A stretch of 64,000 nt of DNA from Bradyrhizobium sp. CIAT3101. GTDB lineage: Bacteria > Pseudomonadota > Alphaproteobacteria > Rhizobiales > Xanthobacteraceae. The position numbers and the translations under genes were made by a program. Positions 11,317-32,897 of this stretch are shown here, piece after piece. The stretch spans positions 6,159,001 to 6,223,000 of the forward strand of contig NZ_CP121634.1 of NCBI RefSeq assembly GCF_029714945.1, in the 5' to 3' direction. Below the pieces are notes generated by a model. It saw only the letters and a list, made by a program, of their open reading frames with translations, did no database searches and was not told where the DNA came from. How positions within the stretch are numbered: the first letter of the stretch is position 1; each line of letters begins with the position of its first letter.

Positions 11317-11333
11317 TGGCATTTGGTATGCCA
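11317..11333. promoter_or_regulatory. GntR-type operator, copy 1 (acyl-CoA ligase side)
   Basis: TGGCATTTGGTATGCCA: perfect 6-bp arms TGGCAT/ATGCCA around 5 bases. On the minus strand a TTGACA (-35-like, 11344-11349) lies 10 bases upstream of the site. Occupancy would therefore block the ligase promoter, about 155 bp before its start codon. Confidence 0.75.
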
Positions 11334-11388
11334 GAAGCCAACTTGTCAAGTCAGAGACCGCCTTAGAACGCCGCAAAAAATAGGCAGC

Positions 11389-11414
11389 TTGACATTCTGG
11401 CATGTGGTATGCCA
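11389..11414 (+). promoter_or_regulatory. TTGACA -35 element plus GntR-type operator copy 2 (gntR-oxc-frc promoter)
   Basis: TTGACA at 11389-11394 is followed after 3 bases by TGGCATGTGGTATGCCA (11398-11414), with the same perfect arms as copy 1. The dyad fills the normal spacer between -35 and -10, as expected for a repressor site. A good -10 hexamer is not obvious. The gntR start is at 11471. Confidence 0.75.
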
Positions 11415-11470
11415 AAAACTTTCCGGTAAATATTCCTGTAAAAGACGACTCCCACTGGAGGAGAATCGTC

Positions 11471-12202
11471 GTGTCACTGCGGAAACCAACCAAGGCGTTG
11501 CCGAACATGGCCGAGGCAGACATCGCAATCGTTCGTATTGCCCCGGAGAGCAGCTTCAAGAACAAGGCGTATGACGCCTTGAAGGAAGCCATCCTCAAGA
11601 TGGACATCTATTCGACGCCCGAGCCGGTGATGCTGGACGAGCGCGCACTGTCCGAACGCCTGGGCGTCAGCCGCACGCCGATCCGCGAAGCCATCGCGAT
11701 GCTCGAGCAGGACGGTTTCGTGAAGACCGTGCCGCGCCGCGGCATCATGGTCGTGCGCCGGACCAAGAGCGAGATCGTCGACATGATCCGCGCCTGGGCG
11801 GCGCTGGAGAGCATGGCCGCGCGCCTCATCACCACCACCGCGCGCAAGAAGGACATTTCGGCGCTGCGCGACTTCTTCAAGGACTTCGGCAAGGACCGCC
11901 TGCCCGAGGATCACGTCGAGGAATATTCGCGCGCCAACATCGCCTTCCACCAGTCGCTGATCTCGCTGTCGGAATCGCCGGTGCTGGTCGATCTCACCAA
12001 CGACCTGCTGCTGCACGTGCGCGGCTATCGCCAGCTGACGATCGGCCGCAAGGACCGCACCGCGACCTCGCTGCCCGAGCATCTCGCCATGATCGAAGCG
12101 CTGGAGGCACGCGACACCGAGCTCGCCGAGAAGCGCGCCCGCGACCACACCCTTGGCCTTGCCGCTTACGTCGAAGCGCATGGCCAGGAACTGTTCACGT
12201 AA
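11471..12202 (+). CDS. GntR-family (FCD subfamily) regulator of the oxalate genes
   Basis: A 243-residue protein. The winged helix lies around residues 35-90 (KAYDALKEAILKMDIY, LSERLGVSRTPIREAIAMLE, VPRRGIMVV). The all-helical FCD effector domain follows, with its metal/ligand residues in RANIAFHQSLISLSESP and PEHLAMIEALEARD. The GTG start at 11471 was chosen for the ideal GGAGGAG seven bases upstream. It heads gntR-oxc-frc (74 bp, then 63 bp gaps) and faces the acyl-CoA ligase. The two dyads in front of it match four more beside the transporters, so it is the obvious candidate regulator. The effector may be oxalate, oxalyl-CoA or formyl-CoA (inference). Confidence 0.93.
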   Translation: MSLRKPTKALPNMAEADIAIVRIAPESSFKNKAYDALKEAILKMDIYSTPEPVMLDERALSERLGVSRTPIREAIAMLEQDGFVKTVPRRGIMVVRRTKSEIVDMIRAWAALESMAARLITTTARKKDISALRDFFKDFGKDRLPEDHVEEYSRANIAFHQSLISLSESPVLVDLTNDLLLHVRGYRQLTIGRKDRTATSLPEHLAMIEALEARDTELAEKRARDHTLGLAAYVEAHGQELFT

Positions 12203-12229
12203 CTCTTCACCTAGCAACATTCACCAGAA

Positions 12230-12246
12230 GGGCGAAAAATTCGCCC
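12230..12246 (+). other. Small hairpin between gntR and oxc
   Basis: GGGCGAA and TTCGCCC form a 7-bp stem with an AAA loop, 31 bp before the oxc start codon. It could lower read-through from gntR or protect the oxc-frc message. There is no T-run, and the role is undetermined. Confidence 0.35.
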
Positions 12247-12276
12247 CGTTATCTTGAGACCAGGGAGACAAGGCCC

Positions 12277-31204: not shown

Positions 31205-31276
31205 GCCCGAATATACCCTAATACCGGAAACCCGAAGGAACCTGCACTTTTCTTGAGCCGGGCGGCAAGATAGGCC

Positions 31277-31301
31277 TTGCATTCTGGAATATGGTATACC
31301 A
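31277..31301 (+). promoter_or_regulatory. -35-like TTGCAT plus GntR-type operator copy 5, upstream of transporter 2
   Basis: TTGCAT (31277-31282) is followed after 2 bases by TGGAATATGGTATACCA (31285-31301). The core TGGTATACCA (31292-31301) is itself a perfect palindrome. The chosen transporter start is 100 bp downstream. Confidence 0.7.
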
Positions 31302-31400
31302 AGCTGCCGCCCGCGCTTGCGACGATAAGCCACAATATTTGCGACACTCCGTCATATGGGCAGCAGTGTCGTGACCAGACAGGCGCTTGGGAGGTTGTTG

Positions 31401-32735
31401 ATGATGTCCAGCACGGACGGCGCCGTGACCGCTGCGCCCCTACGAACCGGTTTCCGTTGGCTCCAGCTCGCAATGGGCATCGTCTGCATGGCGATGATCG
31501 CGAACCTGCAATATGGCTGGACGCTGTTCGTCGATCCGATCGATGCCAAGTACCATTGGGGTCGCGCCGCGATCCAGCTCGCCTTCACCATCTTCGTCGT
31601 CACCGAGACCTGGCTGGTGCCGATCGAGGCCTGGTTCGTCGACAAATACGGCCCGCGCATCGTCATCATGTTCGGCGGCGTGATGATCGCACTGTCCTGG
31701 ATCCTCAACTCCTACGCTGACTCGCTTCCCGTGCTCTACGCGGCGGCCGTCATCGGCGGCATGGGTGCGGGCGCGGTGTACGGCACCTGCGTCGGCAACG
31801 CGCTGAAATGGTTTCCCGATCGCCGCGGCCTCGCCGCCGGCGCAACCGCCGCCGGGTTCGGCGCGGGCGCAGCCCTCACCATCGTGCCGATCGCGACCAT
31901 GATTGCGACGAGCGGCTATCAGCACGCGTTCCTCACCTTCGGCATCGGCCAGGGCGTGATCGTGTTCGTGCTCGCCTTCTTCATCCAGCCGCCGCGGCTC
32001 TCGATCCCGCCGAAGAAGAAGCAGCTCAACCTGCCGCAGACCAAGATCGACTTCACCCCGCCGCAGGTGCTGCGCGCCCCGATTTTCTGGGTGATGTATC
32101 TCGTCTTCGTCATGGTCGCCTCCGGCGGCCTGATGACCGCGGCCCAGATCGCGCCGATCGCGCACGACTTCAAGATCGCCGACACGCCGGTCTCGCTTGC
32201 CGGCTTCCAGATGGCCGCCTTGACGTTCGCGATCTCGCTCGACCGTATCTTCGACGGCTTCGGCCGCCCGTTCTTCGGCTTCGTGTCCGACACGATCGGC
32301 CGTGAGCACACCATGTTCATCGCCTTCGGCACGGCGGCGGTGATGCTGCTGACTCTGTCGGCCTACGGTCACGTTCCGATCGTGTTCGTGCTCGCCACTG
32401 CGATTTATTTCGGCGTGTTCGGCGAGATCTACTCGCTATTCCCAGCCACCTGCGGCGACACCTTCGGCTCGAAATATGCGACCACCAACAACGGCATGCT
32501 CTACACCGCGAAGGGCACCGCCTCCCTGCTCGTCCCGCTCGCAAGCGTGATCTCGACCGCCTATGGCTGGAAGGCCGTGTTCGTGGTGGCCGTGGCGCTG
32601 AACGCGACGGCCGCGCTGATGGCGCTGTTCGTGATCAAGCCGCTGCGCCGCTCCTTCATCCTGGGCAAGGAAGCCGAGAGCGCCAGCACCGCAACTGCAA
32701 GTGCCGAAACCAGAGCCAAGACCGGGACGGCGTAG
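31401..32735 (+). CDS. OxlT-type MFS transporter 2 (oxalate/formate antiporter family)
   Basis: A 444-residue paralogue of the preceding carrier with the same motifs: GAVYGTCVGNALKWFPDRRG, DGFGRPFFGFVSDTIGREH and TAKGTASLLVP with Lys371. ATG 31401 was chosen for GGGAGG six bases upstream. The C-terminal tail is longer and Ala/Thr/Glu-rich. The neighbouring paralogue and separate operators suggest different affinity, direction or counter-ion (for example oxalate uptake against formate export), which the sequence cannot settle. Confidence 0.9.
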   Translation: MMSSTDGAVTAAPLRTGFRWLQLAMGIVCMAMIANLQYGWTLFVDPIDAKYHWGRAAIQLAFTIFVVTETWLVPIEAWFVDKYGPRIVIMFGGVMIALSWILNSYADSLPVLYAAAVIGGMGAGAVYGTCVGNALKWFPDRRGLAAGATAAGFGAGAALTIVPIATMIATSGYQHAFLTFGIGQGVIVFVLAFFIQPPRLSIPPKKKQLNLPQTKIDFTPPQVLRAPIFWVMYLVFVMVASGGLMTAAQIAPIAHDFKIADTPVSLAGFQMAALTFAISLDRIFDGFGRPFFGFVSDTIGREHTMFIAFGTAAVMLLTLSAYGHVPIVFVLATAIYFGVFGEIYSLFPATCGDTFGSKYATTNNGMLYTAKGTASLLVPLASVISTAYGWKAVFVVAVALNATAALMALFVIKPLRRSFILGKEAESASTATASAETRAKTGTA

Positions 32736-32762
32736 CCGACCACACGCCGGCACGACGGTCAG

Positions 32763-32791
32763 AAGGGGCGCAGCGATGCGCCCCTTTTTTC
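32763..32791 (+). terminator. Rho-independent terminator after transporter 2
   Basis: AAGGGGCGCA and TGCGCCCCTT form a 10-bp stem with a GCGA loop, running into TTTTCT. Confidence 0.9.
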
Positions 32792-32872
32792 TTTGCGATC
32801 CTGCTGCGTGGTCCCGACGACAAACGTCAGTATTGCTGCCGCAAGAATTTTCGGATCAGCCAAAACCAGCGC

Positions 32873-32897
32873 TTGACGATTGGCATTATGTATACCA
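32873..32897 (+). promoter_or_regulatory. TTGACG -35 element plus GntR-type operator copy 6, upstream of the CBS gene
   Basis: TTGACG (32873-32878) is followed after 2 bases by TGGCATTATGTATACCA (32881-32897), with arms TGGCAT/ATACCA. The CBS-protein start is at 32931, with GGGAGG in front of it. Confidence 0.72.

What the first reader, a model, noticed from the sequence alone, without database searches (positions are those of the whole stretch)
11317..32897. One operator dyad, six copies: a predicted GntR-controlled oxalate regulon spanning 22 kb
TGGCAT-N5-ATRCCA-like 17-mers occur at 11317, 11398, 29392, 29784, 31285 and 32881. I found them only in front of the acyl-CoA ligase, gntR-oxc-frc, the 45-aa peptide gene, each OxlT-type carrier and the CBS-panE-FAH run. 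At most sites a -35-like hexamer (TTGACA, TTGACG, TTGCAT, TTGAAG, TAGACA) lies 1-3 bases upstream, so a bound repressor would sit in the promoter spacer. The FCD-type GntR encoded at 11471 is the natural binder. Sites and positions are seen; the regulon is inference.
Basis: partly seen in the sequence, partly recalled or inferred. Interest (0 to 1): 0.85.

Follow-up and report, generated by a model that had tools for sequence, protein, structure and literature searches.

The report
GntR operator set controlling oxalate genes
Six copies of a short mirror-symmetric DNA motif mark the promoters of oxalate-use genes in a Bradyrhizobium genome; related bacteria keep them alongside one GntR-type regulator, which points to a real and testable oxalate regulon, although binding has not been shown.

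Summary
All six 17-mers are at the stated positions. The other two (29392, 29784) fit less well and rest on conservation. The gntR pair is kept in 80 of 80 fetched records; OxlT1, OxlT2 and CBS sites in 59/60, 47/47 and 58/58 loci; the peptide site in 50 of 50 distinct loci holding that gene. In a family draw, dyad number follows the gntR orthologue. Beside GntRs of at most 61% identity it still precedes oxc, frc or oxlT in 12 of 19 loci. Dyads begin 1-3 bp behind a -35-like hexamer at five of six sites, so repression by spacer occlusion is the likely mechanism. DNA binding, sign of control and effector are untested. Class: a new member of a known kind, a local FCD-GntR regulon.

The parts
11317..11333 (.). 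dyad TGGCATTTGGTATGCCA, 155 bp upstream of the acyl-CoA ligase start on the minus strand; a second one-mismatch dyad overlaps it at 11324-11340
   Evidence: in 80/80 fetched gntR records
11398..11414 (.). dyad TGGCATGTGGTATGCCA 3 bp behind TTGACA, 56 bp before gntR; starts 81 bp from the other site
29392..29408 (.). variant dyad TGGCATCTGGTATACAT 56 bp before the 45-aa peptide gene
   Evidence: a like site in all 51 rows (50 distinct loci)
29784..29800 (.). dyad TGGCATAATGAATACAA 2 bp behind TTGAAG, 51 bp before OxlT1; the right half is ATACCA in more distant relatives
   Evidence: 59/60 loci
31285..31301 (.). dyad TGGAATATGGTATACCA 2 bp behind TTGCAT, before OxlT2
   Evidence: 47/47 loci with the gene
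32881..32897 (.). dyad TGGCATTATGTATACCA 2 bp behind TTGACG, 33 bp before the CBS gene
   Evidence: 58/58 loci with the gene
11471..12202 (+). FCD-type GntR regulator, 243 aa (GTG start)
   Evidence: PF00392 and PF07729 above gathering; six C-terminal helices in the model
9032..11161 (-). NDP-forming acyl-CoA ligase, 709 aa, divergent from gntR
   Evidence: ATP-grasp_5, CoA_binding_2, Succ_CoA_lig, Ligase_CoA_2; substrate not known
12277..14010 (+). oxc, oxalyl-CoA decarboxylase
   Evidence: TIGR03254 1059 bits, cut-off 739
14074..15351 (+). frc, formyl-CoA:oxalate CoA-transferase
   Evidence: TIGR03253 760 bits, cut-off 504
29465..29602 (+). conserved 45-aa peptide of unknown function, C-terminus NGDLPRFGL
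   Evidence: exactly 45 aa in all 51 rows (50 distinct loci); substitutions by codon position 411/178/589 over those rows; 67 database proteins
29852..31141 (+). OxlT1, oxalate/formate antiporter family
   Evidence: TIGR04259 647 bits, cut-off 335
31356..32735 (+). OxlT2, oxalate/formate antiporter family (start may be ATG 31401, which follows a GGAGG)
   Evidence: TIGR04259 645 bits, cut-off 335
32931..33359 (+). CBS-domain protein, 142 aa
   Evidence: PF00571
33474..34493 (+). PanE/ApbA-type reductase; probable oxalyl-CoA reductase by gene context
   Evidence: PRK06522.1-4 535 bits, cut-off 223; gntR-frc-panE loci without oxc in the fetched stretch
34493..35278 (+). FAH-family hydrolase
   Evidence: PF01557

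Best explanation
The six sites are operators of one VanR-type FCD GntR regulator (encoded at 11471). A dimer binds the two inverted TGGYAT half-sites, whose starts are 11 bp apart. At five of the six sites the dyad begins 1-3 bp behind a -35-like hexamer and fills the -35/-10 spacer, so bound protein should block RNA polymerase. Oxalate or an oxalate-derived CoA ester would release it and switch on uptake (two OxlT carriers), CoA activation (Frc, and probably the NDP-forming ligase), decarboxylation (Oxc), reduction (PanE) and formate oxidation (formate dehydrogenase, elsewhere in the genome), with autoregulation of gntR-oxc-frc. Shown: sites, positions, conservation, co-occurrence with gntR. 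Inferred: binding, repression, the inducer, the enzyme roles of the ligase and PanE.
For: Five exact sites genome-wide, four of them here. Conservation 80/80, 59/60, 47/47, 58/58, 50/50 distinct loci, with the N5 centre changing at OxlT1 while half-sites stay. 905 sites against 57 for the reversed pattern in 146 genus genomes. Site number follows gntR in the family. Dyads before oxc, frc or oxlT in 12 of 19 loci with a GntR of at most 61% identity. Eight of eight gntR-frc-panE loci (L279-L286) keep one dyad before gntR. Formate dehydrogenase is preceded by a full dyad in 17 of 30 genus loci and in four genomes of two other genera with differing centres (L299-L302; regions picked because they hold a dyad). 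Spacing to the -35-like hexamer. Published proteomics: Frc, Oxc and a 'NADH-ubiquinone oxidoreductase chain F' are higher on arabinose than on mannitol in B. diazoefficiens (PMC5996035, sections 15 and 16 read).
Against: No binding or expression data for this GntR. -10 elements look poor at every site, so spacer occlusion assumes a non-consensus promoter. The reversed-pattern control understates background (46 places at one mismatch in the own genome); GntR-less genomes carry 9 sites in 29, about 0.3 per genome, so a few dozen of the 905 genus sites may be chance. 87 genomes with only weak GntR matches hold 73 sites (control 19), some beside oxalate-linked GntRs. 29392 departs from the dyad (ATACAT). 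The own formate dehydrogenase site has one mismatch, and 11 of 30 genus loci have a changed left half. Three of 19 loci with a GntR of at most 61% identity (L264, L274, L275) show no dyad in the fetched stretch.
Confidence: 0.81

Rival explanations
1. The GntR binds the dyads but acts mainly as an activator (or as both), as GlcC-type FCD regulators do, rather than as a spacer-occluding repressor.
For: -10 elements at the six sites look poor by eye, as at activator-dependent promoters.
Against: Dyads lie behind the -35-like hexamer, not upstream of it, at five of six sites; activators of this family usually bind upstream (recalled).
Confidence: 0.12
2. The true operator is the shorter 10-bp core TGGTATACCA known (recalled) for some FCD regulators, and the outer TGGCAT is chance; another GntR paralogue could then own the sites.
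For: TGGTATRCCA is present at 11324, 11405 and 31292; in part of the genus the formate dehydrogenase site reads CTCTGGTATACCAGAG or near it.
Against: OxlT1 and CBS sites lack the core (AATGAATACAA, TATGTATACCA), and across 60 genomes the OxlT1 centre varies (AATGA, ATCAA, AACAT) while the outer half-sites stay.
Confidence: 0.05
3. The elements are sigma-54 (-24/-12) promoters: TGGCAT-N5-ATGCC has GG-N10-GC spacing like TGGCAC-N5-TTGC (consensus recalled).
For: Spacing fits at 11317 and 11398 and at most of the full formate dehydrogenase sites.
Against: The required GC is AC at 29392, 29784, 31285 and 32881. Positions 6 and 12 are T and A, not C and T. The element is a dyad whose number follows gntR.
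Confidence: 0.02

Closest known systems
VanR-type FCD GntR regulators with solved structures (PmiR 7xp0, Brucella GntR 7u5q, TM0439 3sxy, Atu1419 6z74)
   Different: Only 24-26% identical over the aligned part; invariant Asn156 where metal-binding FCDs have Asp (rule recalled); operator TGGYAT-N5-ATRCCA
GlcR, GntR repressor of glycolate oxidase in Paracoccus denitrificans (PMC11323563, passages read)
   Same: GntR family repressor of a neighbouring C2-acid pathway in an alphaproteobacterium, released by the substrate (glycolate)
   Different: Regulates glcDEF, not oxalate genes; sequence relation to this GntR not tested
Oxc-Frc oxalate pathway, and oxalyl-CoA reduction in Methylobacterium extorquens (Schneider 2012, seen only as a citation in PMC3720670)
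   Same: Same enzymes (TIGR03254, TIGR03253, TIGR04259 above cut-off); a reductase branch is likely
   Different: No GntR regulator or operator for it turned up in the ten paper searches

Membership tests
GntR family, FCD subfamily | N-terminal GntR winged helix (PF00392) above gathering score | tested here: met
   47.1 bits against 27
GntR family, FCD subfamily | C-terminal FCD domain (PF07729) above gathering score | tested here: met
   76.8 bits against 24.3
VanR group of FCD regulators | six C-terminal helices (FadR group seven; rule recalled) | tested here: met
   H99-123, 126-136, 149-166, 170-184, 194-212, 216-241, mean pLDDT 76.6
metal-binding FCD (TM0439-like) | Asp plus three His ligands (rule recalled) | tested here: not met
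   Asp position is invariant Asn156; His160, His204, His226 kept in the 24 aligned sequences
Named equivalogs PhnR, NanR, CsiR, LldR, GlcC | score above the NCBIfam cut-off | tested here: not met
   best is PhnR 95 bits, cut-off 271
Local catabolic regulon of a GntR regulator | shared inverted-repeat operator at regulator and target promoters, conserved with the regulator | tested here: met
Local catabolic regulon of a GntR regulator | specific binding of the regulator, released by a pathway metabolite | not testable with these tools
   needs EMSA or footprinting
sigma-54 promoter | GG-N10-GC (recalled) | tested here: not met
   four of six sites have AC instead of GC

The most novel reading that the evidence does not exclude
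One VanR-type GntR coordinates the whole route from oxalate uptake to CO2 and glyoxylate, including a remote NAD-formate dehydrogenase and a strictly 45-residue small protein. In Bradyrhizobium and close kin it has captured the promoter of the sucC gene of the TCA cycle, replacing a sucC paralogue that related genera keep inside the oxalate locus; its role would be to supply a CoA donor for oxalate activation.
Probability: 0.45. Interest if true: 0.68.

Novelty: new member of a known kind. Interest (0 to 1): 0.52.

Why it matters
Bradyrhizobium metabolises oxalate, and PMC4926349 (passages) reports oxalate in soybean nodules and cites Frc and Oxc as expressed there. No GntR regulator of this pathway turned up in the ten searches of the open library. 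The operator gives an exact, cheap set of predictions (six window promoters plus formate dehydrogenase and sucC), a marker for finding oxalate genes in unannotated Hyphomicrobiales genomes, and a functional clue to a conserved 45-aa protein.

Tried and rejected
Short-core operator (TGGTATACCA) as the unit: disfavoured by the varying centre at OxlT1. Sigma-54 reading: disfavoured by AC at four of six sites. Looser genome scans do not separate sites from background and were not used as proof. Other near-matches (loci with NifA-like, cystathionine beta-lyase and BioA genes) were annotated and not followed; their conservation was not tested. A TGGAAT-N5-ATTCCA element 332-365 bp before OxlT1 in six of the 60 loci (L164, L165, L169, L177, L178, L179) was looked at for a peptide gene; no convincing one was seen. 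Sequence and fold comparisons do not identify the ligand. Second sucC copies: the 1.5-2 kb before three of them (G477, G443, G403) hold no dyad (0 of 3), so in those genomes a dyad directly before the copy is not supported.

Papers: Koch 2014 on arabinose and oxalotrophy is not held and was not read; Schneider 2012 was seen only as a citation. Ten searches were judged from listings; passages were read in PMC12927642, PMC5996035 (also two whole sections), PMC4926349, PMC11323563 and PMC3720670 only. The listed PMC5987411, PMC9214030 and PMC7176365, which hold the words searched for, were not opened. Most subscription papers are outside that library.

Rows and limits: nine genomes not shown were entered as without GntR, since says nine more without a match are not listed; the tables were typed into by hand. 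One search kept the best 80 of 212 relatives. The 60 genus loci were hand-picked from 146 genomes. In one search two of the 51 rows (L180, L276) are one locus, so 50 are distinct: 42 in the genus and 8 in other genera. Searches saw 30 loci each, the window's own included, of 61 and 59 listed places. Most of the 20 regions were picked because they hold a dyad.
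Full report
What is there. The window is part of a single-contig 9.37-Mb genome whose closest named relatives are Bradyrhizobium. Genes: NDP-forming acyl-CoA ligase (9032-11161, minus), FCD GntR (11471-12202), oxc, frc, a 45-aa peptide (29465-29602), two OxlT-type carriers, then CBS, PanE-type reductase and FAH hydrolase; oxc, frc and both carriers score above NCBIfam equivalog cut-offs.

Chance. In the window, TGGYAT-N5-ATRCCA has 3 exact and 3 one-mismatch places; 40 simulations gave none and a mean of 0.125. 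In the whole genome, TGGNAT-N5-ATNCCA occurs 5 times against 1 for the reversed pattern: the gntR pair, OxlT2, CBS and one between mdh and sucC. Sites 29784 and 29392 are one and two mismatches off TGGYAT-N5-ATRCCA; at one mismatch the genome has 46 places against 7, so these two are supported by conservation only, and the reversed pattern is an imperfect control.

Conservation. The gntR/ligase pair, 79-82 bp apart, is present in 80 of 80 fetched records. In 60 hand-picked genus loci the OxlT1 site is kept in 59, OxlT2 in 47 of 47 that hold the gene, CBS in 58 of 58. The OxlT1 centre varies (AATGA, ATCAA, AACAT) while half-sites stay, which shows that the dyad, not a 10-bp core, is the conserved unit. 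The variant site before the peptide is there in all 50 distinct loci with that gene, 8 of them in other genera (100 loci searched). Across 146 genus genomes the exact dyad counts 905 against 57 for the reversed pattern.

Link to the GntR. All 137 genus genomes of at least 90% completeness and at most 5% contamination hold the gntR (144 of 146 overall), so the test was made in the family: 40 genomes with E <= 1e-119 hold 183 sites (control 6); 3 intermediate hold 11 (0); 87 with weak matches hold 73 (19); 29 without a match hold 9 (1). In loci of up to 20 kb the same dyad precedes gntR/ligase, OxlT and CBS-panE-FAH in other genera. Of 19 loci whose GntR is at most 61% identical, 12 have it before oxc, frc or oxlT, 2 only before the ligase (L269, L278), 2 near gntR or panE only (L273, L277) and 3 none (L264, L274, L275); several of these stretches are short (read by eye). 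Eight loci (L279-L286, two genera) have gntR-frc-panE and one dyad before gntR, with no oxc in the 10.7-20 kb fetched; oxc elsewhere in those genomes was not sought. If it is absent, the regulator follows oxalyl-CoA formation and its reduction, which favours oxalate or oxalyl-CoA as effector and PanE as oxalyl-CoA reductase (inference).

Wider regulon. (a) Formate dehydrogenase: in the window's genome a one-mismatch dyad lies 161 bp before a NuoF-like beta subunit followed by an Fdh-alpha (TIGR01591 717 bits, cut-off 666). Of 30 genus loci, 17 have a full dyad, 2 (the own genome is one) a partial one, 11 a changed left half. Four genomes of two other genera have full dyads with other centres (L299-L302; beta subunit identified by profile in L299, L300 and L302, by N-terminal likeness in L301). 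(b) sucC: kept in 29 of 30 genus loci, own included, with a nearly fixed centre; absent in L258 and in L317. In 37 family genomes checked at the main sucC, 5 (G515, G375, G449, G534, G519) have it; 9 with a second sucC copy, 9 other GntR-bearing and 14 GntR-less genomes do not, six of the last being congeners of G515. In genus g2 sucC follows panE and FAH behind a dyad (L313, L314), and by coordinates a second sucC follows OxlT in G410, G469 and G503; but 0 of 3 other second copies has a dyad in the 1.5-2 kb before it. Capture of the TCA sucC by the regulon in Bradyrhizobium and close kin is an inference from this pattern.

Mechanism. Conserved -35-like hexamers lie 2-3 bp before the gntR, OxlT1, OxlT2 and CBS dyads, and TAGACA 1 bp before the peptide dyad in this genome. 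A bound dimer would fill the spacer, hence repression. -10 elements look poor at all six. The two gntR-region sites are 81 bp apart, about 7.7 turns, which gives no hint of looping. The GntR model has six C-terminal helices and resembles PmiR and other VanR-type FCDs; Asn156 stands where metal-binding FCDs have Asp and is invariant in the 24 aligned sequences.

Independent data. In B. diazoefficiens, Frc and Oxc are more abundant on arabinose than on mannitol (cytoplasmic fraction) and a 'NADH-ubiquinone oxidoreductase chain F' (blr2316) is found only there (PMC5996035, sections 15 and 16). That blr2316 is the formate dehydrogenase beta subunit is likely but was not tested.

Verdict. The finding is right and understated in extent. 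It is an ordinary kind of system (a local GntR regulon) with an operator that I did not find described in the papers searched; the formate dehydrogenase, sucC and 45-aa peptide links are the less ordinary parts.

Noticed in passing
window 29465-29602: A 45-aa protein of strictly constant length with C-terminus NGD-x-P-x-x-GL and no Pfam domain listed, in 50 distinct loci; in several other genera it lies just downstream of frc.
   Followed up: partly
window 8131-8970 (minus): IclR-type regulator related to BhcR (276 bits, cut-off 350) beside the acyl-CoA ligase; in L292, L293, L294, L295 and L298 its homologue lies next to a gene with a weak (25-31%) oxc match, perhaps another TPP enzyme of glyoxylate use.
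   Followed up: no
L279-L286: gntR-frc-panE loci without oxc in the fetched stretch, in two genera, with a single dyad before gntR: a possible assimilation-only oxalate pathway.
   Followed up: partly
L319 6329-10429 (own genome C1:7545328-7549428): Formate dehydrogenase genes downstream of an OxlT-like MFS carrier; the dyad's left half is changed in 11 of 30 genus loci, in some to a CTCTGGTATACCAGAG palindrome.
   Followed up: partly
window 11317-11340: Two dyads overlap by 10 bp in the ligase-side site (TGGCATTTGGTATGCCA and TGGTATGCCAGAAGCCA); the flank that forms the second is largely conserved in the genus.
   Followed up: no
L081: Record JAUEPE010000001 titled 'Frankia sp. RB7' carries a 98% identical gntR locus; a contig of the same length (516802) belongs to genus-level genome G082, so the label is probably wrong.
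   Followed up: no
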